Assembly (NCBI GenBank): GCA_026120185.1
Contig: JANUWF010001497.1
Location: forward strand, 1,848,501-1,912,500
Reading direction: 5' to 3'
Length of the DNA stretch: 64,000 nt
Source of the DNA: Voacanga thouarsii
Lineage: Eukaryota > Streptophyta > Magnoliopsida > Gentianales > Apocynaceae
Under the pieces are notes generated by a model, which worked only from the letters and a program-made list of their open reading frames with translations, was not told the origin of the DNA and did no database searches. This document shows positions 2,669 to 57,320 of the stretch, one piece after another. The translations under genes and the position numbers were made by a program. The number at the start of each line of letters is the position of its first letter. Position 1 is the stretch's first letter.

Positions 2669-4548
2669 TGTTGGAATATATGCCCAAAATAGCTATGTAT
2701 TTTTGTATTTTAAAAATTAATAAAATTTTCATTCATTAATAGTTGCTTGTTTATATATATTGCACATTAAGGTTTAAGTATATTAGTAAGTAATTTATGT
2801 GATTGGGTCATGCTTTTACAGTAAGGTGTAGATTATGTGTTACTAACATATGAGCAAAAAATTATTCTTGATCGATTGATAGAGTTGGACACTTCATCAA
2901 GGTTTGGATCATTACACTATAGTTTCTAAATGGGAAATAGTTTACCTTTAACCAGTGAGTAGTCTATTTACACCAATAATATAAACGTATTTGGAATATG
3001 TATAATTGGACCACACGATAAAAATCTTATAAAAATACTAAAGTAAATAAAGATTGGTTTGCCACAGCTACTGCGTGGACGAGTATCCTCAGACTTAAGT
3101 ACAAGTTGGTAGTTTGGTGAAGTTGGACTTGTATACTTTGATGTATATTGGGTGAGATCTTATCACAAGGCCAATAACATTGTATGTTGGGCGTATAACT
3201 CTAGTTAATTAAGACAGACTTATATAGTAGAGTTTCTATATTTTATTACGTGAAGAAATCACCCCATTGTGATTGTCCGGGATAATCTAAATAATCTGGG
3301 CCCTAAAAAACATGACTAAGTATGTATACTTTTAGATAGCTCCTTGTGATAAGTGAAAACATACTGGAAATCATGGATTATCGTACTAACTATCAAAGGA
3401 TGGTAGATGTCATTGAGAAAGGTGTTAGTGCATTTTTCCTATCTCAATGATAGGTGTTATGTAGATGAGTATTTTCATCATTACACCTGTAAGTAGAAGA
3501 CTGCACTTGAAATATTATTTTCAGGGTCAATATTTCTATATGGTGATAAATAGAATATTTAAAATGATAAAATACAACTATTTGTTAGCAAGAGTATTTT
3601 AGTTATTTTAGTAGTCAAGAATAATATGTCATTTGGTCCCTAGAGTAGCTCAAATAATCTTAGTAAATTTAATTTACTACATGGGCTTATTGGGTGAATT
3701 TATTATTGGAAGAATTATTCTAGGAGTCCAATTAATTAATTATTTAGATTAGAATAATTAATTAGGCCAACTGAATTAATTAGTTTATTAATTAATTATA
3801 TTGGGTAATTTTATATTGAGTTCAAATAGATTAATTAATTAATAAAAGAGCTAATTTGTTTGGTTTATTAATTAATTGTCTTTGGTAATTTTGTAGTGGA
3901 CCTAAGTTGATTAATTAATTAATAAGAGAGCTAATTAATTAGTCTTTGACTAATTAAGAAAAGTCTTGGCCCACTAGGGTTTGTGTGTAGTGGCTAATAG
4001 ATTTTAGAAACCTAGGATTAGCCACCATTTAAAAATAAATAAGGAAAAATGAAAAACGAAATTAAAAGAAAAGAAGGCCAGTTGGTTTTAGTTAAAAAAG
4101 GAAAATGAAAGCTACGCATCACGTGTGCCTGTACAAGGTTGACCAAATTTTTGAACGAAACAAGAGATAGGTTTTTGGGTTTTCTTTCAAAATAAAAGGC
4201 CACCATATTCTTACTGTTTTTCCTTTAACGTTTAACTGTTCCGTTTTTCTTCCAACCTACTTTACCCTAGTTTTACTTTTACCGATAGATGTCCATAGAG
4301 ATTAAAAAATACTCTGGAAGGTTAAGAGCTAGCAAATGTGGTAAGTGTTTGATGCGAAAGAGCCGACAGTTAGCTGGTGTTACCGTGGAACAAGTAAACG
4401 TTCCAATTCAGAAAGTGTCATCAAATCCGAATCTAACTCTAGTTATTCAGGTAAAACGCCCTGGAAATAAGTATTCCTAAATTTTGGCTCGGAAAAAATT
4501 TTAATATGCTATTTTACGCTGCGTATTTAATTTTTTTGCGGTCCTTCA
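2669..4548 (+). repeat. 5' LTR of Copia-1
   Basis: 1880 bp, TG...CA ends, matched along its length by 9941-11856. It contains the block TTTAACCAGTGAGTAGTC and a long run of AATTAATTA-rich sequence, both also present in the solo LTR at 55440-60169 in reverse orientation, so the two belong to one LTR lineage. A short ORF near its 3' end is listed separately. Confidence 0.92.
4352..4480 (+). other. short ORF in LTR, RKSRQLAG motif
   Basis: An open frame runs from 4289 to the TAA at 4480. From the internal Met at 4352 it reads MRKSRQLAG and then a variable tail. It ends 68 bases before the LTR end. The solo LTR at 55440-60169 has a comparable frame, MQTRRSRRLAG, ending 67 bases before its own LTR end. 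The equivalent frame in the 3' LTR of Copia-1 (around 11660) has stops. Function is unknown; it could be a short leader ORF or the start of a protein that once ran into the internal region. Confidence 0.4.
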
Positions 4549-9940: not shown

Positions 9941-11856
9941 TGTTGGAATGTATGTCCAAAATGGCCTATGTATTTCTGTATTTTTAAAATTAATAAAAGT
10001 TTCATTATTTAATGGTTGTTTGTTTACATATATTGCACATTAAAGCCTAAGTATGTTAGTAATTAATTTACGTAATTGGATCGTGCTTTCACAGTAAGGT
10101 GTAGATTATGGGCTACTAACACAGAAGCGAAAAGTTATTCTTGATTGATTGATAGAGTTGGGCACTTTATCAAGGTTTAGATCATTACACTATAGTTTCT
10201 AAATGGAGAATGATTTACCTTTAACCAGTGAGTAGTCCACTCACACCAATAGTGTAAACGTATTTAGAATACATAGAACTAGATCATGCAATAAAAATCT
10301 TTATAAAAGTACTAAAATAAATAAAAATTAGTTTATCGTAGTTACTGCGTGTATGAGTACCCTAAGATTTGAATATAAGTTGGGGGTTTGGTGAAGCTGG
10401 ACTTGTATACTTTAATGTATATTGGGTAGGGTCTTATCGCAAGGCCAATATCCTTGTACGTTGGGTGTATGACTCTAGTTAATTAGGACAGGCTTATACA
10501 ATAGAGTTTTTATACTTTATTACGTGAAAAAAAATCACCCTATTGTGATTGTCCTAGATAATCTAAATAATTTAGGGCCCTGAAAAACATGACTAAGTAT
10601 GTACACTTTTGGGTAGCTTTCTGTGATAAGTGGATACATACTGGAAGTGATGGATTATCGGACTAGCTATCAAAGGATGATAGATGTGATTGAGAAAAAT
10701 GTTAGTGCATTTTTCCTATCTCAATGATGAGTGTTACGTAGAGGGATATTTTTGTTATTACACCTATATGTTGAAAACTGCACTTGTAATATTATTCTTG
10801 GTGTCAATATTTTCATATAGTGATAAAGAAAATATTTAAAATGATAAAATACAGTTATTTGTTAGTAGGGATATTTTGGTCATTTTCGTAATTATGAATA
10901 ATAAATCTTTTGGTCTTCAGAGTAGCTCAAATAAGCTTAGTAAATTGAATTTACTATATGGGCTTATTGGGTGAATTTATTTTTAGAAGAATTAGTTTAG
11001 GAGTCCAATTAATTATTTATTTGGGCTAAAATAATTAATTGGACCAATTTAATTAATTAGTTTATTAATTAATTATCTTGAGTAATTTTATATTGGGTCC
11101 AAATGGATTAATTAATTAATTAAAGAGCTAATTTATTAAATTAGTATATTAATTAATTATCTTAGGTAACTTTATATTGGGCCCATATGGATTAATTAAT
11201 TAATAAGAGAGCTAATTAATTAGTATTGAACTAATTCAGAAATGCCCTAGCCCACCAGGGTTTGTGTGTAGCGGCTAATAGGTTTTAAAAACCTAGGATT
11301 AGCCACTACTTAAAAAGAAATAAGGAAAAGAGAAAAAGGAAATTAAAAGAAGAGGAGGCCAGTTGGTTTTAGTTAGAGAAGGAAAAGGAAAAGTTAGATG
11401 TTGTTTATATAGGCATCACGTGTGCCTATACAAGGTTAATCGAATTTTTGAACGAAACAAGAGATAGCTTTTTCAATTTTTGTTCAAAACAAAAGGCCAC
11501 TATTTTCTTACCGCTTTTCTTTCATTTTTTCTTTAACATTTAGCTCTTCCATTTTTCTTTCAATCTTCTTCACCCTAATTCTACTTTTACCATTTGAGGT
11601 CAATAGAGGTTATAGAATACTCTGGAAGATTAAGAACTAGCAAACGTGGTAAGTGTTTGATGTGAATGAGCCGGTGGTTAGCTAGTGCTCTTACAGAACA
11701 AGTAGACGTTCCAGTTCAGGAAGTGCCGTGAAACCTAAATCCAACTCCGATTATTCAAGTGAAATGCCCTAGAAGTAAGTATTCCTAGACTTTGGCTCAG
11801 AAAATTTTTTAATTTGCTGTCTTCTGCTTCGTATTTAATTTTTCTGTAGTCCTTCA
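9941..11856 (+). repeat. 3' LTR of Copia-1
   Basis: Starts TGTTGGAATGTATG and ends GTCCTTCA, followed directly by the target duplication TCTAG. It aligns end to end with 2669-4548 with many substitutions and small indels. The short ORF seen in the 5' LTR is interrupted here. Confidence 0.92.
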
Positions 11857-16051: not shown

Positions 16052-17140
16052 AGATAGCTATAAGATCCCAGATAAGGATCAACTTATCAACAAAATCCAA
16101 GGATCTTCATGGTATAGTAAGTTTGACATGAAATTTGGATTTTGGCAGGTAAGAATGCATCCAGACTCCGTAAGTTGGACTGTATTTTCTTGTCCTGAAG
16201 GACATTTTGAATGGCTTGTTATGCCTTTTGGTTTGAAAATAGCTCCACAAGTTTTGCAAAGAAAAATGGATAATATTTTAAGACCTTACTCAACTTTCAC
16301 TTGTGTTTATATAGATGATATTCTTGTTTTTAGCAAAACTGAAAATGAACACAGAGCACACTTACATACAATCTTTTCATTGTTTGAAAAACATGGCTTG
16401 ATTGTTTCTAAAAAGAAAATGACTTTATTCAAGAAAAACATTAATTTTCTTGGAGCAGAAATTGGCCATGGTAAGATTAAACTTCAACCTGCTATATCTG
16501 CAAAAATTTTAGCTTTTCCATATAAAATGGAAGATCTTAAAACTTTGCGAAGTTTTCTTGGACTTCTCAACTATGCCAGGCCTTATTTGAAAAATATTGT
16601 CATACTTACTGCCCACTTTATAACAAAACATCTCCTAAGGGTCAAACACATTTTAATCAAGAAGATATTGTTTTGGTTAAAAAGATAAAAGATATGTGTA
16701 AAACTTTGCCAGAATTAACTCTTCCATTAGATTCAGATTATCTACTTGTAGAAACTGATGGATGTGAAACTGGTTGGGGTGGTATCTTATTGCGAAAACA
16801 ACATAAATATCTCCCAAAAAACACAGAACTTATCTGCAGGTATGCCTCTGGAAAATTCAGAGAAAAAGGTCATGTAACTTCCTTGGATTATGAAATACTT
16901 GCAGTACTATATTGTCTAGATAGTTTTAGATTCTGTTTATTAGGCAGACCTGAAATAACTATCAGAACTGATTGTGAAGCAATTGTTAAATTTACAGAAC
17001 AATCTAAGATTACTCCTAAAGGGCTATCTTACAAACGATGGCTTAAATTTACTGATTGTTTGTTAAAACAAGGACTTAAAATTTCCTGGGAGCACATTAA
17101 AGGCCCCAAAATGCTGCTGCTGATATTCTTTCTCGACTGA
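16052..17140 (+). pseudogene. pararetroviral reverse transcriptase-RNase H, disrupted
   Basis: The RT starts mid-domain, with FDMKFGFWQVRMHP, WLVMPFGLKIAPQ and the catalytic YIDDIL at 16308-16325. The connection region follows (LRSFLGLLNYARPYL), then RNase H with VETDGCETGWGG and SLDYEILAVL. A one-base loss near 16605, relative to the inverted copy, shifts the frame and splits the protein into frames 16128-16688 and 16673-17140. The N-terminal part of the polyprotein is absent. The family call rests on the YIDD motif and the lack of any integrase after RNase H. Confidence 0.85.
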
Positions 17141-17153
17141 TTGTTTAACAGGT

Positions 17154-18501
17154 ATGGCAGACAGATGCAAGAAGAAAGCCTCAACACTCAAAACAATGAA
17201 GTTTGGGACTCATGAACTTCTGATTCATTAGAATTCCAAAACTCAATTCACTTCAAAATTAAGGAAGCAATTGGATGAGGTCCAATGTTGCCTTCTCGAT
17301 AATTTATGGAATCTGGTCACTCCACCAGATTAGTCAAACTCAAAAGTGATTTTAATATCATGCCTTACTAACTATTTTCTTGGTATTCTTGAAAATAGGA
17401 GTATACTCATATTGGGTTTAAATTAAGCCGTATCCTATCAAAGGAACCTCTTACAGAGGATTCTATGAACTTTTAGAAGCTTTGGAAACCACTAGACAAC
17501 GTGTGGGACCAAACTTCTTTATTTCTCAAAACTTGAAAAACAGGCCCTATGGTTCAATATGCCAGCAGGGTAGAACATTTGTTCAAACTGTTACTTCTTC
17601 ATCTTCTACTAAGGCCCCTACTCACCAGACATCTTCTTCGTCCGAGCCAAACACTAAATCTAGTTCTTCAATAGAAATAGTGTGTGAAAAATACTCAAGC
17701 CTCGGTAACCCGTCTCATGGGGAATCTGCCAAAGGCCCTATTAAAGTATGGGAAAAACTTCCTTATCCTTTACTAGGCCAGATCAAGGTTATAGTAGAAT
17801 ACATCAATATTCCCAATATGACTGCTCATTTTGACTTCCTTAAAGAAGCTCATAGGAATTCCATTCCTGAACTTGTAGGCATCTCTCTCTTTTATAAGGT
17901 AGAGTATGCGCAGAGAAGACCTTGCAAAGGCCGTTTTAGCCAATGTAGAGCGCAAACTTCTGGATCTAATCCAGGACTTTCATATTGTAGATGTCAATTG
18001 GTCTATTCCATCCAGAAGGCAAATATTGATATCAGTTTATTCCCCACACTTTATTTTTCTGGAGTAGAGATTACTCCAAGCTCTTTAATGACTTTCGGGT
18101 TATTAAATTCACTTATTGTGGATGATATAACCTACACTATGGATCTTCCTCATCCTTTAAACATAATTCTAAGAAAACTTTTTCATACGTTTGAAGGACC
18201 AGCCCACTTGTTCATTGAAAGCTCTCCACCAGAGTGGATAGCCGCAAAAAGTGAACCAACTAAACACTTTATCAGAATCAGCACTTTGGAAATAGGATTA
18301 CTTCCTGATTCAGATCTTGATCCAGAATGGGAAGCTGGAACCTCACTTGATTACCAACTAAAGCACTGGCATGCTAAAATGATTGGGACAAATTGGAATT
18401 TTTTAGCTAACGATAAAACTGAATTTTGTTTAGTAGGAGAAACCATGCTGAAAAAATATTACTGGCTGAAAGAATTCGATACAATATTTCTTCCATTCTA
18501 A
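17154..18501 (+). pseudogene. pararetroviral second ORF, TAV/viroplasmin-like
   Basis: An ATG at 17154 overlaps the end of the RNase H region. Early in-frame TAG codons stand where the inverted copy has Gln, and a further shift precedes the long open part at 17482-18501 (339 codons, starting in frame with ETTRQ). The C-terminal part has a serine-rich segment and then an unrecognised globular region. In the inverted copy the matching N-terminal part contains CYVLFTGEHVGVYFDWAE, which resembles the viroplasmin / RNase H1 N-terminal fold of caulimovirus inclusion-body proteins. The role is inferred from this motif and from gene order. The copy is not intact. Confidence 0.6.
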
Positions 18502-20040: not shown

Positions 20041-20720
20041 TTAACATTTTAGTAAAACCATGAATGTTAACTTGACAAGCAACCTGAGTTTGTGTAAGAT
20101 TTGTATTACACATTGTAGGTTGAGAAGTAAAAGTACAGGATTTGTCATCTGACTCATTATTGACAATGCCTTTTTGTTTTTCTCTATAGGAATGGTTAGA
20201 GAAATCAATGTCTGAAATTGATTTTGATTCAAAATAATTTTCTTTAAATTGAATAAATTGAAGTTATAAATCATTGAATTGAGTTTCTAGAGTAGAAACC
20301 CTAATTTGCAGAATCCTTTGATTTTGTCTGGTGGTTTCCAAAGCTTCTGAAAGTTCATAGAATCCTTTGTAAGATGTTTCTTGGATAGCACATGGCTTAA
20401 TTTCAGCCCAATCAAAGTATACCCCTACATGTTCACCTGTAAATAAAACATAGCAAGAGAATTTCTTTCCTTGGGGGTTTTTCAAGAATACCAAGAAAAT
20501 AGCTAGTAAGGCATGATATTAAAATCACTTTTGAGTTTGACTGATCTGGTGGAGTGACCAGATTCCATAAATTATCAATAAGGTAACATTGGACCTCATC
20601 CAATTGCTTCCTTAATTTTGAAGTGAATTGAGTTTTGGGATTCTGATGAATTAGAAGTTCATGAGTCCCAAACTTCATTGTTTTGAGTATTGAGGCTTTC
20701 TTCTTGTCTCTGTCTGCCAT
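20041..20720 (-). pseudogene. pararetroviral second ORF, inverted copy, frameshifted
   Basis: Starts with an ATG at 20720 just after the RNase H end. The first 95 codons are open, a frameshift near 20490 follows, then a second frame to 20264 contains CYVLFTGEHVGVYFDWAE (viroplasmin-like), and a third to 20041 is AT-rich. This copy keeps Gln codons that are TAG in the plus copy. It is truncated at the junction with the plus copy. Confidence 0.6.
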
Positions 20721-20733
20721 ACCTGTTAAACAA

Positions 20734-22200
20734 TCAGTCGAGAAAGAATATCAGCGCAGCATTTTGGGGGCCTTTAATGTGCTCCCAGGAAATTTTAAGT
20801 CCTTGTTTTAACAAACAATTAGTAAATTTAAGCCATCGTTTGTAAGATAGCCCTTTAGGAGTAATCTTAGATTGTTTTGTAAATTTAACATTTGCTTCAC
20901 AATTAGTTCTGATAGTTATTTCAGGTATGCCTAATAAACAGAATCTAAAACTATCAAGACAATATAGTACTGCAAGTATATCATAATCCAACGAAGTTAG
21001 ATGACCTTTTTCTCTGAATTTTCCAAAGGCATACCTATAGATAAGTTCTGTGTTTTTGGGGAGATATTTATATTGTTTTCGCAATAGGATACCACCCTAA
21101 TCAGTTTCACATCTATCAATTTCTACAGTTAGATAATCCGAATCTAATGGAAGAGTTAATTCTGGCAAAGTATTACACATCTCTTTTATCTTTTTAACCA
21201 AAACAATATCTTCTTGATTAAAATGTCTTTGACTCTTAGGAGATGTTTTGTTATAAAGTGGGCCAGTAAGTTTGCCAATATTTTTCAAATAAGGCCTGGC
21301 ATAGTTGAGAAGTCCAAAAAAACTTCGCAAAGTTTTAAGATCTTCTATTTTATCTAGAAAAGCTAAAATTTTTGCAGATATAATAGGTTGAAGTTTAATC
21401 TTACCATGGCCAATTTCTACTCCAAGAAAATTAATGTTTTTCTTGAATAAAGTCATTTTCTTTTTAAAAACAATCAAGCCATGTTTTTCAAACAATGAAA
21501 AGATTGTATGTAAGTGTGCTTTATGTTCATTTTCAGTTTTGCTAAAAACAAGAATATCATCTATATAAACACAAGTGAAAGTTGAGTAAGGTTTGAAAAT
21601 ATTATCCATTTTTCTTTGAAAAACTTGTGGAGCTATTTTCAAACCAAAAGGCATAACAAGCCATTCAAAATATCCTTCAGGACAAGAAAATGTAGTCCAA
21701 CTTAGGAGACCGATGTCTAGAGTCTGATCACTAGATTGCCTCGAGACCAAGCAGTTGTTCCACATGCATTTTGCATTCCTGCTGCTCAAAGTTAGAGTAT
21801 TTCATATCTTGTGCTTTAATAGTCAAATCAGGATTAATGATATCTAGTTTGCAGAAAACCTTATCTTTCTCCTAATATTTTAGGGAGTTTTCTCCAATAA
21901 TTTCTAACTTTTCAAGCCTAGAAATAATGTCTTCAATGGGCGCATTGAGTTGTAGGTTTTTCAGGATCATCCTAGGATTTAGATAAGTATCTATTTCTTC
22001 AAGAATTTCTCCCGAAATCAAGTCATAATTAGTATGGGTATCAATACACAAGAGATCTTGGGTATCTAATGCCTCATAACATGTCAGATCTATGCTATAG
22101 CTACAAGCCTTCTTTTCAGCTTGAATTTTAGCATTAAAAGTGTTCTTTCTTTTACATGATCCTGGAGGGTCACATAAACATTCATTCTCAAAAGGAATGG
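20734..22200 (-). pseudogene. pararetroviral polyprotein part with RT-RNase H, disrupted
   Basis: From 22200 down to about 21790 the minus strand encodes a linker that ends KLDIINPDLTIKA and a region like the start of a viral RT domain. The sequence then jumps to WTTFSCPEGYFEWLVMPFGL, so the N-terminal part of the RT is deleted at about 21720-21780. YIDDIL and the RNase H start follow. A stop after EIDRCETD at about 21097 (a Trp codon in the plus copy) splits the RNase H. There are two long open frames, 21789-21097 and 21084-20734. Confidence 0.8.
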
Positions 22201-22316: not shown

Positions 22317-23026
22317 CCCTAAAAGGAAGCACCTTTTCTCGATTTTGTGCACGAAGAAAGACCCGTAATTCAATCGGTTACCCCAAGCCAGTCGAATCAA
22401 GAGATGGAGAGAGGAAATAGGAGAAAACAAGATCTGTTGGGCCTTACTTTCTGAATCTTCAGTACCACTACCCTATTTGGGCTTAGGGGGAGGAATAGGA
22501 AATCCCAGTTTTGAAGACAAAGATTGAAAAGAAGATAGCTGGTAGGAAATTCCTTTGTTTGCTATTTTTAGGGACCCTATTCCCGGAAAGCCAATAAAAA
22601 GCCTACGAGTTGCCCAGAGAAAGAAAAGAGATTCCCTAAGGGCTGAAGGTGAAGGGCTTGACCTGCTATAGATCTAGCAGATGGGAAAACTATAATATTT
22701 AGATTTCGCAGGTCTTTTGGAGGCCTTGACCTCTCCTCTCAATAAATAGGCTTTTTTCCCTTCGCTTCATCATAAGCTGTCACTGAAGAGGCTGATGCCG
22801 ACAATCAGCTTATCTGCAAGAGAGAACCCTTAGCGGCCTCGCCGCGGATGGAGAGGGATTCGAACCCCCGATATTTCTATCAATACTTCGGTTTTCAAGA
22901 CCGACTCTTTCAACCGCTTAGACATCCATCCCCTTCACGCTTCGCCCGCCCTGTCTATTCGCGCGCTGGTAGGTATGGGCTTATCTATGTGATTTGCTAC
23001 GCTTGCTTGCGCCTATCGGCTGATTC
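22317..23026. other. nuclear mitochondrial DNA insertion (NUMT)
   Basis: About 700 bp of more GC-balanced sequence contains a plant mitochondrial-type trnS(UGA) gene with its flank. Base composition differs sharply from the AT-rich surroundings. I recognise the tRNA as the mitochondrial form; the flanking sequence is called mitochondrial by continuity only. Both sides abut alternating TA/CA/CG tracts. Confidence 0.7.
22846..22931 (-). tRNA. trnS: tRNA-Ser(UGA), mitochondrial type, in NUMT
   Basis: The minus strand from 22931 folds as a class II tRNA. The acceptor stem GGATGGA pairs perfectly with TCCATCC. A D-arm with AAGCGGTTGA, an anticodon loop CTTGAAAA with anticodon TGA (22897-22895), a long variable arm and a GGTTCGAATCC T-loop follow. 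The 86-nt length fits serine. The sequence matches my memory of plant mitochondrial trnS-UGA. Lying in the nucleus, it is probably not processed for mitochondrial use, and expression is unknown. Confidence 0.85.
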
Positions 23027-23775
<749 letters not shown>

Positions 23776-24052: not shown

Positions 24053-25806
24053 TCATAGAGATTTCATTCGAAAAACTCTATTATACCAAATAGAGTGCAG
24101 AATCATATGAAACAAATCATATTTTACAGGATCAGCATGCCAAAGAAAATGTTTCTGTACCTCTTTCACTCTCTTTTGCATCTCAAAATACTTTTCTGGG
24201 GAGATAGAAAGAAGTGTACTCTTCAAGTTGGGAATGTCCTTCTCTGAGATGAAAACAGCAAAGGATTCCCAATTCAAAATCTAAAACAAAGGAGGCACAA
24301 AGTTGTCAGATATTATAACTGGAACACACTCATAGGGGATAGATTCCATAACTCGCGGGCTATTGACTGCATACCCTCTTGCACAAATGCAATACTTGCT
24401 GCTCTTCATATGCTGTATGTAATTCTTATCACCCCTCACATGGGGCATTCGAGCAAAGATTCTCATGTCGGTATCTTTTCCCCAGTGATATAGTAGTATT
24501 GGACAGACATGTCCGTGCATATAACCAGCAAAGAAAGCTAGGATTGATCTTTGAGAAGGAGGCTCACCTCCAATATCCTTGAGAGGATTTTGCGCTGATC
24601 GGACATATGTTGTAGGAAGAGAAACATCCTAGCCTATCTCAAAACCAACTCTGACATCAGCATTGCAAAGTGCTCTAAGGCTATTCCTAAGAAGACCTCT
24701 AGTTTCAGCAGGGGCCTGAAAAAAGAGCTTTGTCACAAATCTCGTCTTCCATCAATATGGGAGAATAGAAAATAAGAGAATCTTTCTTCACACGTTCCAA
24801 TAGCTCAGGCTCAACTCTATGGATAACAGACAACTTTCCAATAATTTACAAGATTGCTTATCAAATTGGGATGGTGTTTGTTGTATTCCTCATGAAGAAC
24901 ATGCGTGATGAAATAAATCAAAATGATGCTCATGTAAAGGATTCACATGTTCCTAATGATATTAGTCGTGAGAACTCAAATAAGCTTACAATGACATACC
25001 CAATCATGGCAAGCAGCCAGGAAATGATCTTCTCCATCAGTTCGGTTCCAGAAAGGATACCTTTGGGCAAGCATATCCACATAATTCCTCACGTACTTTA
25101 TAAGGTTATCACGACTGTGTGAATGACGCTTATAAAGAGTTAACTGTAGCAATCGTGAACTAAACGGTATGTAAAACAGGTGAGCTTTTGCAGGATCGTC
25201 AGCCACATATTGTTTATTTGATTCCAATAGCTTTAAAAACCATCCCTCAGCTGCATATATCCCTTCAAGAATTAAGTCATGGAAAATCGGTTTTTCACCT
25301 TCCTTGTAGATGTAAATTTTGAGCATTTTCTCCATTAATTCATAGCTGCTGCAAACACAACATGATGTTCAGTAATAAACAGAAGAAAACCATCACGTAT
25401 TTGCTTTGAGCTAAGTGATAGCTAAATAAAAGATACACTTAAGTTGGAGGCTTGGATACTTCTCTATGTGTGAAAGAGTACTTGTTGCAAGAAATGCATA
25501 TGAGAGTCATGAAGAATTGAGAAACACTTGAAAGAGAGAAACATGGTGCAAAGCTAACTCCCAATTTACAACTAGGAAAAATAGTGCGTTTCATGTTAAC
25601 AACCCTTATCCATATGAGAGGTGATAGCTTTTAGAGCTTTCAATTTCTAGTTTCTTAGTTTTCTTCTCCCACTTGGATCCTTATATATCTTAAGGCTCTA
25701 TTTAATCTAAATAAATGACAGAAAGTTTAAAGCAAAAATAGAGCAATGAATTGTAAGATGAGGCATATATACAGCAAAGTGACACAAATAATCAGTAGTC
25801 TCAAAC

Positions 25807-32994: not shown

Positions 32995-35900
32995 TCAGCT
33001 AGATCGTACTTGAAAAACTCTATTGAACCATACTGAGTGGAGTATCATGTGGAAAATATCATACTTCACAGGCTTAGGATGCCACAGAAAATGCTTCTGT
33101 ACCAGCTTAACCATCCTCTGCATTTGTAGATACTTCTTCTTTGGAATGGACAGAAGAATATTTTTCAAATTCGGAATGTCTTTTTGCAGGACAAAAACTG
33201 CAAAAGACTCCCAGTTTAAGGTATCAAAGAAAGGAGGCACAAAATTGTCAGATATGATCACAGGAACGCACTCGTAGAAGATTGCTTCGACAACTCTTGG
33301 ACTGTTTACTTCAAAACCTTTTGCACATATGCAATACTTACTGCTTTGCATGTGCTGGATGTAGCTCATCTTACCCTTCACATTAGGCATCTTGCCAAAG
33401 ATTTTCATGTCAGGATCTTTGTTTTCCCAATATTTCAGCAGAATTGGCCGGAAATATCCGTGCATGTTTCCAGCAAAGAATGCAAGGATGTGACGCCTGG
33501 AAGGATTTTTTCCTCCAAGTTGTCGAAGGGGATTCTGAGGAGATCGCACATATGTCTCTGGGAGCGACACATCTTTCCCAAAGACAAAACCTTCCTTGAC
33601 ATCAGCGTTGCACAGGGCTCTTATGCAATTTGCCATGATATGTCCTGTCTCTGACGGGCCCTGAAAAGAAAAAGTTTACCTCTTAAAAGAGAGTTATAAC
33701 ATTCTCATAATTCGAAGTATTTGACTGGCAGAGTAGAGCTGGAAGTCAAAATGTAGATATGTTATGTTAAAAAGAGTGAGAACCCTATCTGAAGAACTGT
33801 AACTTTAGAAGAAACTCATTTTGAAGCTTTGGGCATGTAGAGTAACTAATAACGGATGAATATCCATGAGTTACCACATGCCACCCATAATGTCGCAGAC
33901 CATTGATTTAAAAATGATAAAATAATTATCTCAGACATACCCAATCATGGCAGGCAACAAGGAAATGGTCAGATCCACCTGTTCTGTTCCAGAACTGATA
34001 CTTTCTTGAGATTACATTAATGTAATCATCCAAACATTTAATCAAATTCTTGCGGTTGTGAGAATTAGGCACATATAATGTCTCCTCCAACATTCGTGAA
34101 CTGAAAGGTAGGTAAAAGAGGTGAGCTTTCTTTGGGTTTTTAGTAGCAAATTGTTTGCTTACTTTCAGCAGCTTCATAAACCATCCCTCAGAAGCATATA
34201 TTCCTTTAAGCACTGGCGTATGGAATATTGGTTTATTTCCTTCTTTGTAAATATAAACCTTCAGAGTCTGTTCCATTAATTCATAGCTCCTGCATTTGAA
34301 TAATTTTAAATATTGGATCAGTTCATTTTAATACTGTAATACATGATTTACTGTGGGGATGAGCACTATGTAAATATAAACATTGCAAAATGAGATAGCT
34401 CAGTATCACTTTTACATAAGTGATTAATATCAATTATAAGCGTAAATATGTTGATATAGACAAAAGCTAAAAAATGTGAATGGAGGATCAAAAAGACAGC
34501 TTACTCGTAGCCTCTCCTGTGCTGCAAGTTTGTTAAATGACAGTGGAAGGCTTAAGGTGTTTGCCAACATGAGCAGGGTCAAAATTAGTTAAGGAAATAA
34601 GATGTACATTGTCTGGATGTTCAAAGCGTCCAGAAAATGTCATGAGAGTAAGCAAGCAATTCTAAAAAGTTAGCAGAAGAAGATACATACTTCGGCAAAT
34701 CAAAAATACACTTGGGCTGGAGAAGCCATTCAAGCGTAAATGGTAATCTGATTTAGATGTAAAAGTACCCAAAAAACCAGACAAAATAGAGATGTGTAGT
34801 GGTAATAGTAAACAGCCGATACAAACTTCTTCTGTTGAGAATTTCACTGGCATACCTTTTAAACATGGATAAGTTTCGAAAAAGTGGAACATATAGGTCA
34901 GGGTCATCTTGAACATTAGGAGCATTTTCAATTAGAGACTTAACACGTCGTAATTCTTGATCTGCACTAGAAGTCCATCGTGATTTCTAAAGATGACATG
35001 CAGGAAGCAACAGGAAAAGGGAAGTGCCATTAATATCTGTTAAGAAAGTGCTGCTAATATCTGATAGATAGGTTCACAATCGCAATGAGATGGAAAACTT
35101 TCACATACCACTGAATGAGGTGAAGTGAGACTCTGAAGCAGCAAATTGTTCATTTCAGATATTGACACTACAGCACCTTCAAAGCCAAGAGAGCTTTCCT
35201 TGATTTTGGGATACTGACGAACATCAAGAGTAAAATTAATCAATGAGGAAATGTCAGTCTTTGGCAACCCAGGATTTTCACTTTTCTCAACCGTTTTGGT
35301 TGCATATCTCTTCACAGAGGTTGCATTAGGATTGAATAAAACAGGAGTCCTCGGATTTCTGTTGTTGTCTGCCGGGGATGTCAAAGGAGGTGATAAATCT
35401 AGTGGTTGTGCTGAAACTGAAGGGCTTGAAATGCTACTACTTTTAACTTCATCTACTGTTGAGGTTGAAGCAACAAGTGAAACATTATTTCTAGTACCAT
35501 ATGGTGTTGCTGTTGGTACTGGTGTTGGAGCAGTGGAATCATATTCCCTAGCCTTTTCTGGTGCTAGAGTATCATTTCTTCCCATGTTGTCCATTATTTG
35601 GTTGTCATTTAGTTCTATGAAGTCCTTGGATGGAGATTCATCTTCAGGATCAGCATTATCAGAGATATCATCAGATTTTTCATTTTCATCTTTTCCATCA
35701 GAAAGCTCAGACACATTAGCCATATCATCAACGGTACTTGGATGAGTGAAGTTTAAGACTTCAGAAAATGTCAAATTTCTGTTATCTGATGAATTCTCTA
35801 TCTGAAAGCTGCTTGATGAATTCCCAACAGAGAAATTGCCCACGGATGCTACTTTTGTCTTGCCAAAAGATGATAAGGACAAAAAAACATTTCCATCAAG

Positions 35901-38850: not shown

Positions 38851-39190
38851 TATTATAAAATTAGGGTAGTGTTAGAATAAAATTTACACACTACACACTA
38901 AGAAAATTCTAACTATTCTTTGCACAAGAATTTCTCTCTTTCTTTCTCTCACAATTTTCTCTAATCTTTCTTTCACAAAATAATGGTGTATTACAAGCTT
39001 AGAGAATAACTCTATTTATAGAGCTCTAATTAGTGGAATACATCATGCCATACATCATCTTCCACTAATCTCAATTAGTGGTGTCTCCACTAAATGGTGG
39101 ACATCCAAAAAAATCTTCTCTAATAATTCACATAAATCCATAATTAGTGGAGCCTCCACTAATTAATGGAGATTCCAATAATTCATAATA
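38851..39190 (-). repeat. 3' LTR of Copia-2 (element on minus strand)
   Basis: 340 bp, aligned over its length with 44005-44344. Its ends read TATTAT and ATAATA on the plus strand, where the partner has TGTTAT and ATAACA, so the canonical TG...CA is lost at both ends by single transitions. The purine tract CCAAGAGAGAG (minus strand, 39201-39191) abuts it. Confidence 0.88.
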
Positions 39191-39315
39191 CTCTCTCTTG
39201 GATGTCCATCCATTACATAAAGAATATGCCTCGTTAAAACCTTACTAGATAAAAACCCAGTGAGAAAAAAAATCTAGTGAAGGAAAAAGAGTACACTATT
39301 CTATATGTCTGTTTA

Positions 39316-41485
39316 TTACTCTCCCTGATGAGATGATTCCTTTAAATCTTTAAACCGACGCATACCGATTTTATATCTCAACTTTTCAAATGTTGCAGTC
39401 GGTAAAGTCTTCGTGAAAATATTTGCGAGGTTGTCACATGACCGAATTTGTAGCACATCAATTTCACATTTCTTCTGGAGTTCATGAGTAAAGAAGAATT
39501 TTGGTAAAATATGTTTTGTCCAATCTCCTTTAATATGTCCTCCTCGTAATTGAGCTATGCAAGCTGCATTGTCTTCATAAAGAGGAGTTGGAATATCTTT
39601 GATTGATGATAATCCACAACTTTCTCGGATATAATGAATCATGGATCTTAGCCATACACATTCTCGGCTTGCTTCATGAATGGCTATACTTTCAGCATGA
39701 TTTGAAGAAGTAGCTGTTATAGATTGTTTCGTAGAACGCCATGATATAGCAATATTTCCACATATAAATAGATAGTCCGTTTGAGAACGTGCTTTATGTA
39801 GATCAGATAAATAACCAGCATCTGCATAACCAATCAATGTTGGGTTGGTTTTATTTGAATAAAATAATCCGAGATCAATTGTACCTTGGAGATATCGAAG
39901 GACTTGTTTAATTCCATTCCAATGTCGTCGTGTTGGTGAAGAACTAAATCTTGCTAATAAATTGACAGTAAAAGTAATATCAGGTCGTGTATTATTAGCA
40001 AGATACATCAATGCACCAATTGCACTGAGATATGGTACTTCAGGACCAAAGAGTTCTTCATCATTTTCTTGAGGTCGGAAATGATCTTTATCCACATTTA
40101 ATGATCGGACGATCATTGGAATACTCAATGGATGTGCTTTGTCCATGTAAAATCTTTTTAGCACTTTTGCTGTATATGTTGATTGATAAATAAATATTCT
40201 ACTTGCCAAATGTTCAATTTGTAAACCAAGGCAAAGTATACTTTTACAACCATCCTTGATGTCGAATAATCAATTGTTTCTTAGAGCTCTTCAGGAGTTC
40301 CAATAAGATTAATATCATCAACATATATAGTTAATATCACAAATTTAGAATCAGATTTCTTAATAAAAACGCATGGACATACCTGGTCATTTTAAATCTC
40401 GCTTTCAATCAATTTTCACTAAGATAATTGAACCGCATGCGCCCAGATGGCTTCAGGCCATATAATGATTTCTGCAATTTGATGGAGTATTTTTCACGAG
40501 GATAATGTGTATATGCTTCTGGCATATGAAATCCTTTTGGGATTTTCATGTAAACATCATTTTCTAAATTTTCATACAAGTAAGCAGTGACAACATCTAA
40601 TAAGCGCATATCTATCTTTTCATGTACTGCCAAACTGATAAGATATCGGAGTGTAATAGCATCAACAACAGGAGAATAAGTTTCATCATAATCAATACCT
40701 GGTCTTTGTGAAAAATCTTGGGCTACTAATCGCGCTTTATATCGAACGATTTCACTTTTTTCATTGCGCTTTCGTACAAATATCCATTTGTAGCCAACAG
40801 GTTTTACACCTTCTGGTGTTCGGACTGCAGGTCTAAAGACTTCACGTTGTGTCAGTGCATTTAACTCCGATTGAATCGCATCTTTCCATTGCAGCCAATC
40901 TTTTCTATGCCGACATTCATCAACTGATATTGGTTCAGGATCATCACTATCCTGTATAACATCAAGAGATATTATATGCAAACATATGATCAATAATTGT
41001 TTCTATCCGATTCCAACTTCTACCAGAAGTGGTATAATGGATAGAAATTTCAGTGTTACTTTCATTTATGTCTGGTTCTTTGTCATAAGTTTTCTCTTGG
41101 TCTTTATCATTCTTTACTTTAATATGATCATCTGGACCATTAATCATCTCTTCTTTCGAGGATTTTTATCTTTAGAACCAAGAGGTCGGCCATGCTTCTG
41201 GCAAGCTTTTGGCTCAGCAGCTATATGTAAAATCTTTTGTTCTGTTGGAACTTCAATTAGAATAGGAGCATTTATAGCTGACATATGTGATTTTGTTACT
41301 CTTCTAGAGTCAACAAAAGCGTCTGGCATTTGATTTGCAATGCTTTACAAATGAATTATCTTTTGAACTTCAAGTTCACACGCGCTTGTATGCGGATCAA
41401 GATAATTTAATGATGTTGTGCAATCACGATCTTTCTTGTACTGTTTTTGTTCTCCCCCTAATTTAGGGAATAATGATTTCACAAG
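39316..41485 (-). pseudogene. Copia-2 reverse transcriptase and RNase H remnant
   Basis: From 41485 the minus strand encodes the pre-RT linker (SLFPKLGGEQK, CELEVQKIIHL, MPDAFVDSRRVTKSHM, GRPLGSKDKNPRKKR). RT follows in 40993-40409 (PVGYKWIFVRKRNE, YSPVVDAITLRYLI, LLDVVTAYLYENLENDVYMK, KLQKSLYGLKPSGRM). The catalytic YVDD is at 40326-40315 in a shifted stretch. RNase H is 40209-39316 (YLSAIGALMYLANNTRPDI, SWRSTKQSITATSSNHAE, NNLANIF-like NLANIFTKTLPTATF). Upstream integrase and protease are absent. A few frameshifts and stops show that it is inactive, but the frames are longer and better kept than in Copia-1. Confidence 0.9.
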
Positions 41486-41499
41486 AGAATAAGAAAAGA

Positions 41500-43150
41500 A
41501 ATATAAGAAAATGATGACAAGCAGGAAATGCCAAGAAAAATATCTCTTTTTTTTTTCACTCTTCCCGGTACCGACTTTTCCTCTTCCTCTCTTGTCTTTT
41601 CTTCTCCTCCGACCCTCTACCTACCATCTACCTCTTCTTCTTCCTCATACAGATATATATATATATATATATATATATGTATCGATATATATCTCAGTCA
41701 TCAGTCATTAGGAAATATCAAAAACAAAAATCACAAAGCAGATATGGAGACTCGTAATTCATTTGAGACATGGTCAAATTTTGACTCGGTTTCTGCAACA
41801 GATTTTGATGTATTTTCCTTTCCAAACCAACCGCTTCTGCCTAATTTGAACACAGAAGATTTTGATATGTTTTCCTTTCCAAACCAATCGCTTCTGTCTA
41901 ATTCGAACGCAGAAGATTTTGATATGTTTTCCTTTCTAAACCAACCACTTCCTCCTAATTTCAGGTGAGATACCTTTGAGGGCTTCCATTTGTTTTTAGT
42001 ATGCTTGATAATGAAATTAAACTCTCTTTTGGTTTATTTTTGATGTAAATCAGTGGAAGTTTTGAACATACTGCTTTGGACCAAGTTGATCTGCCCCTAC
42101 AAGAGACTGCTTTTGATACTGTTCCTCTTGATGCTATTCCTTTGAATGAAGATATGCTTATGCATGATCCATTCTACTCTCTAATGGATTTTGAATAAAG
42201 CCAGAATATGATTCCAGGTTATTATACATTTAAACATGGATTTTGAATGGTATTACCTTTACTGATATTATTTTCTTTTTCTAGGAGAAATAATGAGTGG
42301 TCTTGGCAACGAAGTTGGAGTAAGTACTCATGAAATGTTTAATATCGAAGTTCAAGATATTATTGCAAACAAAATTCCTGGGGAGAAGAAGATGATTAAG
42401 AGGCAGAGAGAGAAGAAGGGCAATAACTCCCAGACACTATCAAGAGAAACAATTTCGCAGTACTTTTACCTACCAATCAAGAGCACAGCCAAAGAACTGA
42501 ATATTGGCATAACCCGTCTCAAGAAAAGATGTAGGGAGTTATGAATTCGTCGATGGCCTCACAGGAAGTTGGTGAGCTTGGAGACCATAATCAAGAATGT
42601 TTAGGTTCTCTCTCATACATACTTATAATTTGCAAGTATGAAACTATGAAAGATTTATAAGTAAATAACCGATGATATCACTTCGATTTATAGGAGATGC
42701 AAAATAAAGAAGAAGGAGGACATATGGCTGAGAAGAAGTTGAAAGAAGCCATTGCGATACTGAAATGTGAAAAACAGTTGGTGGAAGAAAGTCCTAATAC
42801 GCAGTTAGAGGACCAAACACAGAAATTGAGACAAGCATGCTTCAATGCCAAATATAATAAGAAATTTAATTATAATAAACTTAAGGGGATCATAAAATTC
42901 CAAGACTCATTTCGCAGTAATTTTACGGCTAATTCTGCTGCTAATCTCGATGCTGGCTCAAAGGGGAAAGAAAAGGAGGAGGATGCCGAAAAAGAGGAGC
43001 TGAAGTCCATAATTACTAATTGTTTGTCTTCCTCTAATGTAAATATTGAAAAAAAACAATTACAAACATTCATCTTAAATTTGTCAGCTCAATTACAAAA
43101 GAGCAACTATAAGCATGTATCCTCAAGTTCATATGAACACTAGTGATATG
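41500..43150 (+). pseudogene. RKD-like: RKD-type RWP-RK transcription factor copy inside Copia-2
   Basis: RKD proteins are plant RWP-RK DNA-binding regulators of egg-cell and gamete identity. Exons by splice-site fit are 41744-41964, 42054-42217, 42285-42604 and 42694-43143, with phases that join correctly. Exon 1 (METRNSFETW...) has three tandem 19-residue repeats. Exon 3 carries the RWP-RK domain: LSRETISQYFYLPIKSTAKE, LKKRCREL and RRWPHRKLVSLETIIKNV. Exon 4 has a heptad-rich helix and LEDQTQKLRQACFNAKY, typical after the RKD domain. Three in-frame stops break it: TAA 42196-42198, TGA 42542-42544 within the domain, and TAG 42602-42604 where the family has Gln. Introns are retained. A (TA)n run and a pyrimidine-rich leader precede the ATG, and an AATAAA follows the stop. 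It lies antisense to the retrotransposon, between gag and pol. Confidence 0.85.
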
Positions 43151-43189
43151 AATAAAAGGTGTGATGCTTATTATTAATAGAAATATCTT

Positions 43190-43912
43190 TTTCCCTTATT
43201 ATCTTTTCTGTTCCACTTCAGGTGGCCAATATTTCTCTATGATAAGGGAAATATCGAGTGTGTCCATGACTATAACAACGGCCACTGCCACAACTACAAC
43301 TATAACGATGGCTTCTGCTGGAGCCAACAACATTCACTTCTGGGAGTGCTGTTGAGCTAATTCATCTGGCTTCATGATTTCTCAATAATAACTCATGTTA
43401 AATTTGTCAATTTTGGATATCATTTTTCTCGATATTGTTACTGCAGGACAATATTCGAGGTATGAAAAGTGGTGAATGTCTTCTCCAATATAACTTCATC
43501 AGTAACTTTTTCTCCGCAAAATTTTTAACTGAGATGTAGTTTTATACATCACGGAGTTATATTCATTCACGGTTTTAAAATCTTGTAACCTCAGGTGCAA
43601 CCATTCATACCGTGCAGTGGGTAGTACGACCATCTTCAGGTGGTCAAATATTTCTTTTAAATTTACCCACAGGACATATGGATCTTTTTCGGTAAGATAT
43701 TCCATTTTTAAATTTTCATCGAGATGACGACGAATAAAAATCAAAGCTTCAGCTTTGTGTTGTGCAGATGCACTATTATTTGCTTGAATAGTTTCACTAA
43801 GGCCTTCAGCATTTAGATGCATTTCTGCATCGAGAACCCATGACATATAATTTTTTCCAAAAATATCAAGGTCTACAAATTCGAGTTTAGCGAGATTAGC
43901 CATAGAGATCAA
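43190..43912 (-). pseudogene. Copia-2 gag remnant
   Basis: Starts MANLAKLEFVDLDIFGKNYM shortly after the primer binding site and continues with AEALIFIRRHLDENLKMEYL, DPYVLWVNLKEIFDHLK and RYEWLHLRLQDFKTVNEYNS, a UBN2-type copia gag. After 43499 the frame shifts, but the sequence still reads EKTFTTFH, LLLRNHEAR, a short Arg/His/Cys-rich segment and RYFPYHRE, which is the C-terminal gag region. Similarity ends at about 43190, right beside the 3' end of the RKD-like copy. The zinc knuckle is missing. Confidence 0.85.
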
Positions 43913-43987
43913 TAAATGCGTACCTGTCTTCTGGTTTTGTTAACGACAGAAACTCGTGCTTAGTCTTCTGGCTTTTGTACCGGTAGA

Positions 43988-44004
43988 GACTCGTACTGAT
44001 AACG
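43988..44004 (-). other. primer binding site of Copia-2
   Basis: Directly inside the 5' LTR the minus strand reads CGTTATCAGTACGAG. Plant copia elements of this lineage have CGTTATCAGCACGA here, so one base differs. Confidence 0.7.
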
Positions 44005-44344
44005 TGTTATAAAATTATGGTAGTTTTAGAATAAAATCTATACACTACACACTAAGAAAATTATAACTATTCTTTGCATAAAAATTTCTCTCTTTCTTTC
44101 TCTCACAATTTTCTCTAATCTTTCTTTCACAAAATAATGGTGTATTACAAGTTTAGAGAATAGCTCTATTTATAGAACTCTAATTAGTGGAATACATCAT
44201 GCCATACATCATCTTCCACTAATCTCAATTAGTGGTGTCTCCATTAAATGGTGGACATCCATAAAAATATTCTCTAATAATTCACATAAATCCATAATTA
44301 GTGGAGCCTCCACTAATTAATGGAGATTCCAATAATTCATAACA
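44005..44344 (-). repeat. 5' LTR of Copia-2 (element on minus strand)
   Basis: 340 bp with TGTTAT...ATAACA ends. On the minus strand it carries a TATA box in AGTTCTATAAATAGAGC and several inverted AATTAGTGGAG / CTCCACTAATT words. It differs from the other LTR at a modest number of sites. Confidence 0.9.
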
Positions 44345-55665: not shown

Positions 55666-57320
55666 GAACGCCAAGCTTTCTAACTCTCGAAATATTCCTC
55701 TGCCCAATCTCTAGTCGATGAATATAATGGTGAAGAGGAACGGTCTCAAATCTCCTTAGTTCACTTGCTATTGATTAGCAAAGAAAAATAAGAAGAAACA
55801 GAGAAGAGGAAGGCTTGAGAGTAAGAGAGTTACGTGAGTTTTCCAGAGAGGGACGTGAGTCTCCTTTTGCTAGGGAAAAATTAGGGGTTTTCTCTACCAG
55901 AGACTTGTTTATTGGTTAGCCAAAACTCGGTCTCTCATTATCTGATAAACATATCCCCGGGATATCATATTTCAAAGCACCAGGATGTTATCCTGAGAAT
56001 CAGTTTGTCTTAACCCTAAACTCCTCTTAACCTATCTAGAAAAACCCTACAGTCCAAGCTATTGGGCTAAAATAATATTTATTATTTTTCTTGGACCCAA
56101 AAGGCCCAAAATAATAAACATTAATTATTTATTTCTTGGTCTCATATAAATAACCCAATAAATAATTAATAAGCCCAAATGAACCATAATAATTAATCTT
56201 TAATTATTTATTTCTTGGGCTTATATAAATAATCCAATAAATAATTAAACATTAATTATTTCCTCTAATTTAAACCAAAGTTAATTTCTTAATTATTCAT
56301 ACTGGACCTAGGCACTGAATAATTAATTAACCAATTAAACTGAGAATTAATTTCTCTCAACTCCAATTTTATTTATTTATTTATTTATTTTATTCCAGTA
56401 TAATAATAAATTAGACTTCCTGAATAAAATCAAATAAAATAAAACCCTCTTGAACTGAGACCAATTCCTCAACCCAAAATTAGTTAGGACTTACGGGCTA
56501 TTCCGAGGACCAAAAAGACATATCGCCTTGGCTGCTAAAATGACCAAAATACCCCTACTATATAAATAGCTGTATTTTGCATTTTAAATATTTCTTAATA
56601 TCACCATAAGGAAATATTGACCCCAAGGATAATGCTGCATTAGCAAAGTCTCCGACCTACAGGTAAAATGACTAAAATACCCCTCTACACATCGCCATAC
56701 ATTTAGAGAGGAAGAAGTGTACTAACACCCCTCTAAATGACATCTACCATCCTTAGGCTTCTAGTCCAATGATCCACGACTTCCTAGAGTGTTTCCGCTT
56801 TCCAAGGGAGCTACCCTAAAGCAAGCATCCAAGTCATGTTTCCCAGGGCCCTGGACATTTTAGACCATTCGGACAACCACAAGGGGCTATATAGTGCAGA
56901 AACTATCTTGTACAAGTCTGTCTTAACTAACTAGTCACACATACCCAGCATGCAAGTATATTGGCCCTACGATAGAACCTCAACTATAGCAAATCAAAGT
57001 ATATGCTTTCAATTTCGCCAGACCACCAACTCATACTCAAGTCGTAGAGTACTAGTCCACGCTGTAGTAGTAGTAGTCTAGGTTTCTATCATATAGCACT
57101 TTTAGAAACCACTACTACAGATCATGTCCTACGTATTCGAAATACGCTTATGTTATGAAGTGAGTGGACTACTCACTGGTTAAAGGTAAGCCATTCCCCA
57201 TTTGGAATTCATAACATAATAACCTAAGCATGATGAGGTTCCCAGTCTTATCAATAGGTTAAGAACAAATGTTTATGTGTTAAATAACCCGTGATCCATA
57301 CCTTACTGTGAAAGACCACC

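What the first reader, a model, noticed from the sequence alone, without database searches (positions are those of the whole stretch)
41485..43190. RKD-type RWP-RK gene copy with introns, antisense inside a copia retrotransposon
Seen: copia gag (43912-43190) and pol (41485-39316) on the minus strand flank a plus-strand four-exon gene copy with an RWP-RK domain. The outer LTRs and primer site are identifiable, and protease plus integrase are absent exactly where the gene sits. Known: RKD proteins control gamete/egg-cell identity, and RKD loci have been tied to nucellar embryony in some fruit trees. Inference: the element captured a host gene. The antisense orientation explains why introns survived, since they would not be spliced from the element's RNA. 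If the family amplified with this cargo, its transcripts would be antisense to RKD and could feed small RNAs against the functional gene. Three nonsense codons argue against protein function.
Basis: partly seen in the sequence, partly recalled or inferred. Interest (0 to 1): 0.82.

Follow-up and report, generated by a model that had tools for sequence, protein, structure and literature searches.

The report
Jumping-gene family carrying an embryo-control gene
In this plant genome a virus-like jumping element has picked up a complete gene of the kind that controls egg and embryo identity and has copied it, introns included, to perhaps two thousand places, while a second, unrelated jumping element carries the same kind of gene.

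Summary
A Copia LTR element (38851-44344, minus strand) holds a complete four-exon RKD-type RWP-RK gene in antisense between gag and pol remnants; no protease or integrase domain was found. A probe across the RKD/gag junction had 2225 first-look candidates in the 1.35-Gb assembly. 40 of 40 scored matches crossed it, and 39 of 39 copies fetched from these keep both junctions. Ten of 15 LTR-bounded copies have perfect, different 5-bp target duplications; LTR divergence is 0.008-0.10. So the gene was acquired and amplified by retrotransposition, recently too. This copy has three nonsense codons, but 6 of 54 copies examined read open across all four exons. Pol looks decayed and near neutral (ML omega 0.95); RKD shows modest constraint (0.67-0.70), with ascertainment caveats. 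RKD also sits inside an hAT DNA transposon (tens of copies), whose RKD is the closest relative among those sampled and matches the captured segment from 5' flank to 3' UTR. This suggests DNA-level acquisition, possibly from hAT. RNA, protein and small-RNA activity are untested.

The parts
38851..39190 (-). 3' LTR of the Copia element (in element sense), 340 bp
   Evidence: 96.1% identical to the other LTR; ends differ from TG..CA
39316..41485 (-). pol remnant: RT/RNase H pieces and the region upstream of RT, broken by stops and frameshifts; other copies share further stops and indels
   Evidence: RVT_2 E=5.4e-33 for 40409-41002; shared lesions in 15 copies
41486..41520 (.). left junction, Copia pol to captured RKD segment; homology to the hAT-borne RKD starts at about 41514
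   Evidence: alignment of copies and of L018
41514..41743 (+). captured 5' flank of RKD: pyrimidine-rich stretch and (TA)n
   Evidence: shared by the copies and, in part, by L018
41744..41964 (+). RKD exon 1, with a 57-bp (19-codon) tandem repeat whose copy number varies between elements
42054..42217 (+). RKD exon 2 (one nonsense codon in this copy)
42285..42604 (+). RKD exon 3, RWP-RK domain (two nonsense codons in this copy)
   Evidence: Pfam PF02042 E=1.1e-20
42694..43143 (+). RKD exon 4 to the stop codon
43144..43190 (.). right junction, RKD 3' end to Copia gag; some other copies (L010, L013, L026) keep about 80 bp more of RKD 3' UTR here
43190..43939 (-). gag remnant
   Evidence: Retrotran_gag_2 E=0.0011 for 43499-43939, below cut-off
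44005..44344 (-). 5' LTR of the Copia element (in element sense), 340 bp, with TG..CA ends

Best explanation
This is one copy of a non-autonomous Copia LTR-retrotransposon family whose cargo is a whole RKD gene. Shown: the cargo lies antisense between gag and pol, no protease or integrase domain was found in this copy, all 39 junction-picked copies keep both junctions, and copies integrated independently with their own target duplications. Inferred: the segment was acquired once, at DNA level, because it keeps 5' flank, three introns and 3' UTR. The closest donor among those sampled is an RKD gene carried head-to-head with the transposase of an hAT DNA transposon in the same genome. The LTR-driven RNA carries RKD in reverse, so its introns are not spliced out and the gene survives each cycle. 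Missing enzymes come in trans from an autonomous Copia not identified here. The gene brings its own 5' flank and can yield an RKD protein from the minority of open copies. The modest constraint on RKD, with pol near neutral, suggests that expressible RKD favoured the copies that spread, plausibly by promoting egg- or embryo-like cell states in which new insertions are inherited. This last step is hypothesis only.
For: Anatomy. Amplification with the same junctions: 18 of 20 fetched places from the top of the RWP-RK list show RKD joined to Copia sequence; junction probe 40 of 40 scored out of 2225 candidates; 39 of 39 junction-picked copies have both junctions. Independent recent insertions: 10 of 15 perfect, different TSDs; LTR K 0.0082 to 0.1001. 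Single origin: the 11 Copia-borne RKDs put in the tree form one clade, ultrafast bootstrap 100. DNA-level capture: introns, 5' flank and 3' UTR shared with L018. hAT source: PF05699 E=2e-26; 19-bp perfect TIR, L018 325-343 and 7821-7839; L018 and L068 homologous well beyond RKD; 68 candidates, 40 of 40 scored on the transposase side of the junction. Constraint: between subfamilies A and B NG86 omega is 0.83 for pol (bootstrap 0.67-1.08) and 0.34 for RKD (0.28-0.52); ML omega in the same 14 copies 0.95 versus 0.67, and 0.70 for RKD in 40 junction-picked sequences; shared variants N:S 130:50 in pol versus 64:47 in RKD, p=0.015, singletons no different, p=0.66; lesions per 100 codons 1.75 in pol versus 0.57 in RKD in 13 copies.
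Against: Most copies are broken: 37 of 40 in the junction-picked set. Shared length changes do not spare the reading frame: of 11 exon length changes shared by 3 or more of 35 copies, 4 are multiples of three and 7 are of 1 bp. Some stops are shared by 2-4 copies. So broken RKDs have also spread, or hotspots recur. The first sample was chosen by RWP-RK score, which lowers lesions and dN in the domain; domain omega is 0.21 there but 0.71 in the junction-picked set. The low NG86 ratio in RKD comes largely from a raised dS (0.21, against 0.09 in pol); RKD dN outside the domain (0.080) is about that of pol (0.075). On the tree, terminal versus internal N:S in RKD is only borderline, p=0.050. hAT as donor rests on 73-80% support and the extent of homology. 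No autonomous partner was identified, and there are no expression data.
Confidence: 0.64

Rival explanations
1. Neutral passenger: the element captured RKD once and copies it as filler. Occasional open copies are simply young, and the N/S signal reflects sampling, mutation bias or constraint before capture.
For: 37 of 40 junction-picked copies are broken. 7 of 11 shared exon length changes are of 1 bp. Domain omega is 0.71 in the junction-picked set. dS is raised in RKD. Terminal versus internal N:S is borderline.
Against: In nearly the same copies (14 of 15 shared) pol shows no drop in N/S among shared variants while RKD does. Internal-branch N:S is 105:80 in RKD (54 copies) and 127:54 in pol (15 copies), p=0.009; with RKD cut to 14 of the pol copies p=0.013. 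Whole-cargo omega in the junction-picked set is 0.70 against 0.95 for pol.
Confidence: 0.35
2. The useful product is RNA: element RNA antisense to RKD, or hairpins from opposite copies, feeds small RNAs that lower RKD activity or silence the element.
For: The cargo is antisense to the LTR transcript. Vicient and Casacuberta propose a dsRNA route for antisense aORFs (PMC7264820, two of three parts of the text read). Antisense overexpression of CitRKD1 abolished somatic embryogenesis in sweet orange (PMC6090715, passages).
Against: A purely RNA role predicts no N/S contrast between RKD and pol; one is seen, modestly. No RNA data were available.
Confidence: 0.15
3. The copies are segmental duplications or one later nested insertion, not retrotransposition of a cargo element.
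For: None found.
Against: 10 of 15 LTR-bounded copies have perfect, different 5-bp target duplications next to TG..CA ends. 39 of 39 copies keep both junctions. LTR divergences differ from copy to copy.
Confidence: 0.02
4. The Copia and the hAT element each took RKD independently from a host gene, rather than Copia from hAT.
For: Copia and hAT RKDs lack different amounts of the segment between HLEF and EKK in exon 3, and the Copia branch is long. A third repeat background carries RKD too (L070; 12 of 40 scored matches of its 3' flank, itself included, are 238 bp or longer).
Against: The Copia cargo and L018 share homology from 5' flank to 3' UTR, wider than either shares with L070. Copia and hAT RKDs group together at 73-80%.
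Confidence: 0.4

Closest known systems
Antisense additional ORFs (aORFs) of plant LTR retrotransposons: maize Grande gene23, rice RIRE2, Silene Retand, PvRetro13 (review PMC7264820, parts 1 and 2 of 3 read)
   Same: An extra gene antisense to gag-pol, kept in most copies. In Grande it is transcribed from its own promoter and encodes a nuclear protein.
   Different: Those lie between pol and the 3' LTR and the review calls the origin of most of them unknown. Here the gene lies between gag and pol, its plant family is known, it keeps introns and no PR/INT domain was found.
Gene transduction by plant LTR retrotransposons (maize Bs1, rice and sorghum captured genes; as described in PMC7264820)
   Same: A cellular gene carried inside an LTR element.
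   Different: [quoted passage not shown] Here the cargo is antisense, has introns and is in perhaps two thousand copies.
Pearl millet RWP-RK genes overlapping intact LTR elements (PMC10011142, section 8 and passages read)
   Same: RWP-RK genes overlapping LTR elements and an expanded family.
   Different: A grass. [quoted passage not shown] no antisense cargo, shared junctions or hAT carrier is described in what I read (supplements not seen).
Gypsy elements with an AlkB-like 2-ODD domain in Phalaenopsis (PMC9289625; abstract, passages and section 12 read)
   Same: A cellular domain fixed in a multi-copy LTR lineage.
   Different: Gypsy, not Copia. In that screen of 121 angiosperm genomes the 15 extra domains that passed its filter were all in Gypsy-type elements, and the term RWP does not occur in the main text.
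RKD1/RKD2-type RWP-RK proteins (Cornus, Fraxinus, Nicotiana, Nyssa and others)
   Same: Homology over the four exons and the RWP-RK domain.
   Different: 40-49% identity in the 8 aligned; altered domain residues, varying exon-1 repeats, an extended C-terminus.

Membership tests
RKD subfamily of RWP-RK proteins | RWP-RK domain | tested here: met
   PF02042 E=1.1e-20; 150 scored places in the genome all over the cut-off, chosen by score
RKD subfamily of RWP-RK proteins | nearest relatives are RKD rather than NLP proteins, over most of the length | tested here: met
   the named best hits are RKD1/RKD2 or RWP-RK proteins, with up to 92% query coverage; lower down a few of the 120 listed are labelled Nin-like or NLP1-like; alignment of 9. 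No tree with NLPs was built
RKD subfamily of RWP-RK proteins | activity in egg or embryo identity | not testable with these tools
   no expression data
Copia LTR retrotransposon | two LTRs with TG..CA ends and a 5-bp target duplication | tested here: met
   window 4 of 5; 10 of 15 copies perfect
Copia LTR retrotransposon | Copia-type RT (RVT_2) | tested here: met
   E=5.4e-33
Copia LTR retrotransposon, autonomous | protease and integrase upstream of RT, open gag-pol | tested here: not met
   no such domain in the 13 minus-strand ORFs of the window copy; broken gag-pol frames in the 6 copies listed; shared lesions in pol
LTR-mediated gene transduction | many copies with the same cargo junctions at independent sites | tested here: met
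Antisense aORF under selection | coding capacity conserved as well as or better than gag-pol | tested here: inconclusive
   several measures favour it, with sampling bias, a borderline test and shared 1-bp indels against
hAT transposon (for L018/L068) | hAT dimerisation domain | tested here: met
   PF05699 E=2e-26 in L018; L068 was fetched only in part and is tied to it by homology
hAT transposon (for L018/L068) | terminal inverted repeats and an 8-bp target duplication | tested here: inconclusive
   19-bp perfect TIR in L018; with ends set one base in (326 and 7838) the flanking 8-mers CTCTTGCA/TTCTCACA match at 5 of 8

The most novel reading that the evidence does not exclude
RKD is a recurrent selfish cargo. 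In one plant genome a Copia retrotransposon and an hAT DNA transposon both carry an intron-containing RKD gene, because an egg- and embryo-identity factor supplied by the element opens or enlarges the cell states in which its new insertions are inherited. TE-borne RKD dosage could then bias the host towards asexual embryo formation.
Probability: 0.2. Interest if true: 0.95.

Novelty: new variant of a known kind. Interest (0 to 1): 0.76.

Why it matters
LTR elements with extra antisense genes are known, but the origin and role of most are open questions. Here the origin is visible: a plant transcription-factor gene, with introns and its own 5' flank, moved into a Copia element and was copied on a scale of perhaps two thousand, with an hAT element carrying the closest relative sampled. 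[quoted passage not shown] CitRKD1, PMC6090715, passages). That makes a direct test possible of whether transposons exploit germline regulators. It also warns that RWP-RK gene counts in such genomes, and apomixis candidates based on them, may be transposon copies.

Tried and rejected
Rejected: a private or later single insertion and segmental duplication. Not achieved: the autonomous Copia partner and a count of family members without RKD (probes did not complete); the host name. A matK search did not complete. The exostosin gene's named best hits include Mikania, Glycine, Cinchona, Escallonia and Coffea, which does not settle the host; Gentianales is only a guess from the full-length matches. 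No single-copy RKD1/2 host gene was found, though only one candidate was checked: L070 looked native, but its 3' flank recurs (12 of 40 scored matches, itself included, of 238 bp or longer, the other 11 at 85-93%). The ML domain omega of 0.21 is not used as evidence because the junction-picked set gives 0.71. An earlier idea that shared exon indels keep the frame is not borne out (4 of 11 events). Searches for a published RKD-carrying Copia or hAT; only the pearl millet association was found. Most subscription-journal papers and preprints are not held in that library.

Rows dropped: L009, L011, L013 and L026 from the exon alignments (aligned span over 2 kb); L018 from Copia counts; L016, L017 and L027 from the pairwise table; L009, L011, L013, L018, L027 and L028 from LTR analyses because no LTR pair or no RKD was found. 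The pol set has L026 and not L027, the RKD set the reverse. Codons with over 30% missing rows were dropped. Exon-1 repeat codons were left out of the N/S counts. In one search exon 2 of four rows (L010, L012, L019, L020) was read out of frame; the tree was repeated on exons 3 and 4 alone, with the same main clades.
Full report
OBSERVATION. The element runs from 38851 to 44344 on the minus strand. Its 340-bp LTRs (38851-39190 and 44005-44344) are 96.1% identical. A weak Copia gag match lies at 43499-43939 and RVT_2 at 40409-41002. Between them lies a plus-strand gene with four exons that join in frame, homologous over most of its length to RKD1/RKD2-type proteins, at 40-49% identity in the 8 aligned, and holding an RWP-RK domain (E = 1.1e-20). 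This copy has three nonsense codons and no frameshift. The 13 minus-strand ORFs of 50 aa or more inside the element gave no protease, zinc-knuckle or integrase match.

AMPLIFICATION. The assembly has 1.35 Gb in 1848 contigs. The RWP-RK model found 3618 first-look candidates, of which 150 were scored; all 150 pass the Pfam cut-off, but these are the best by score. Of 20 places fetched from the top of that list, 18 show RKD joined to this Copia sequence. The other two are L028, a different RWP-RK gene, and L018, treated below. A 271-bp probe across the RKD/gag junction found 2225 candidates, and 40 of 40 scored matches cross it at 97% or more. I fetched the 39 other than the window copy, and 39 of 39 carry both junctions. 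About two thousand copies is therefore a plausible order of magnitude; only 40 were scored.

TRANSPOSITION AND AGE. Fifteen copies, the window included, have both LTRs in the fetched stretch. Ten of the 15 have perfect 5-bp target duplications, all different, next to TG..CA ends; the best offset was searched, so single matches could be chance, but the ends are canonical. LTR divergence K runs from 0.0082 to 0.1001; the window copy has 0.0456. At an assumed (recalled) 1.5e-8 per site per year that is about 0.3 to 3.3 My.

STATE OF THE GENES. In the first sample 3 of 15 copies read open across the four exons with all splice sites (L021, L022, L023; in L021 part of exon 1 is read in a shifted frame). 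In the junction-picked sample 3 of 40 (window included) read open, two of them with all splice sites (L034; L049, L064). That makes 6 of 54 distinct copies. In the six copies listed gag-pol is broken into pieces, even where the LTRs are nearly identical, and pol stops and indels are shared between copies. The family therefore looks non-autonomous.

SELECTION. Evidence for: pairwise NG86 omega between subfamilies A and B is 0.83 for pol (bootstrap 0.67-1.08) and 0.34 for RKD (0.28-0.52). ML omega over the tree is 0.95 for pol and 0.67 for RKD in the same 14 copies, and 0.70 for RKD in the 40 junction-picked sequences. Variants shared by two or more copies have N:S 130:50 in pol and 64:47 in RKD (p = 0.015), while singletons do not differ, 211:73 and 123:47 (p = 0.66) (14 of 15 copies shared between the two sets). 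In the junction-picked set singletons are 147:47 and shared variants 82:50 (p = 0.0096). By parsimony, internal-branch N:S is 105:80 in RKD (54 copies) and 127:54 in pol (15 copies), p = 0.009. Stops plus frameshift gaps per 100 codons are 1.75 in pol and 0.57 in RKD in 13 copies. Evidence against: the first sample was picked by domain score; domain omega is 0.21 there but 0.71 in the junction-picked set; much of the low NG86 ratio comes from raised dS in RKD (0.21 against 0.09), and RKD dN outside the domain is about that of pol; terminal versus internal N:S in RKD is borderline (485:264 and 105:80, p = 0.050; in pol 375:134 and 127:54, p = 0.38); of 11 exon length changes shared by 3 or more of 35 copies 7 are of 1 bp; some stops are shared by 2-4 copies. 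I read this as modest constraint in the lineages that spread, followed by neutral decay after insertion.

ORIGIN. The 11 Copia-borne RKDs put in the tree form one clade (ultrafast bootstrap 100). Copies L010, L013 and L026 keep about 80 bp of RKD 3' UTR that the window copy lacks and that L018 has. So a genomic segment, from 5' flank through three introns to 3' UTR, was taken, which argues for DNA-level capture. L018 and L068 hold RKD head-to-head with an hAT transposase: PF05699 E = 2e-26 in L018, a 19-bp perfect inverted repeat ending at 325 and 7839 of L018, and homology between the two loci well beyond RKD. The hAT copies group with the Copia cargo at 73% and 80% (exons 3 and 4 only), and share the widest span with it. 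An intronless RKD copy was read (L069) and one search lists many similar contiguous matches; a third repeat background exists (L070). A Nyssa RKD query had 6588 candidates in this genome, 207 matches. Published RWP-RK counts are 13 in cassava (PMC10454212) and 36 in Zanthoxylum armatum (PMC11202622), both from the search listing.

MECHANISM. Shown: structure, junctions, independent insertions, open copies in a minority, hAT carriage. Inferred: because the gene is antisense to the LTR transcript its introns are not spliced out and the cargo survives each cycle; enzymes come from another element; RKD is transcribed from its own 5' flank, as reported for maize Grande gene23 (PMC7264820, parts 1 and 2 of 3). 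Hypothesis: RKD favours cell states in which insertions are inherited.

COMPARISON. A screen of 121 angiosperm genomes found the 15 extra domains that passed its filter in Gypsy-type elements only, and RWP does not occur in its main text (PMC9289625; abstract, passages and section 12). In pearl millet RWP-RK expansion is associated with LTR elements (PMC10011142; section 8 and passages). I therefore call this a new variant of a known kind: antisense cargo in an LTR element, with an unusual gene, retained introns, very high copy number and a second carrier of another class.

Noticed in passing
L018 325-7839 (G000:C2) and L068 (G000:C1837): An hAT DNA transposon carrying an RKD gene head-to-head with its transposase; tens of copies by probe.
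   Followed up: partly
L069 1380-1919 and G000:C817:3446976-3447545: Intronless RKD copy with exons 3 and 4 joined; many similar contiguous matches are listed in the genome, so RKD may also have spread as processed copies. Its flank matches a repeat in the window at 56188-57009.
   Followed up: partly
L070 (G000:C591:1749900-1752700): RKD gene whose four exons look open by eye, not obviously in a transposon, but its 3' flank recurs (12 of 40 scored matches, itself included, of 238 bp or longer).
   Followed up: partly
G000:C486:1180765-1182406: Two RKD genes head to head, their exon-3 matches only about 20 bp apart, without stops inside.
   Followed up: no
window 23358-23663: A further LTR of the same family, 82% identical, opposite orientation, next to a long (ATA)n-type tract and near a tRNA-Ser gene at 22844-22931.
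   Followed up: no
window 16166-17499 and 20324-21708: Inverted repeats 91% identical with RVT_1 reverse-transcriptase ORFs (E=8.6e-34 and 3.1e-25); they look caulimovirid-like by eye, which was not tested.
   Followed up: no
window 2669-4548, 9941-11856 and 56507-57314: A dispersed repeat in three places in the window, 70-83% identical.
   Followed up: no
window 24070-25353 and 32998-34294: Two related regions; the second encodes an Exostosin GT47 protein (E=1.2e-38).
   Followed up: partly
window 41800-41970: Exon 1 of RKD holds a 57-bp tandem repeat (19 codons) whose unit number varies between copies.
   Followed up: partly
RKD exons in copies L010-L025: Synonymous divergence between subfamilies is about twice that of pol and of the RKD introns; the cause is unexplained.
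   Followed up: partly
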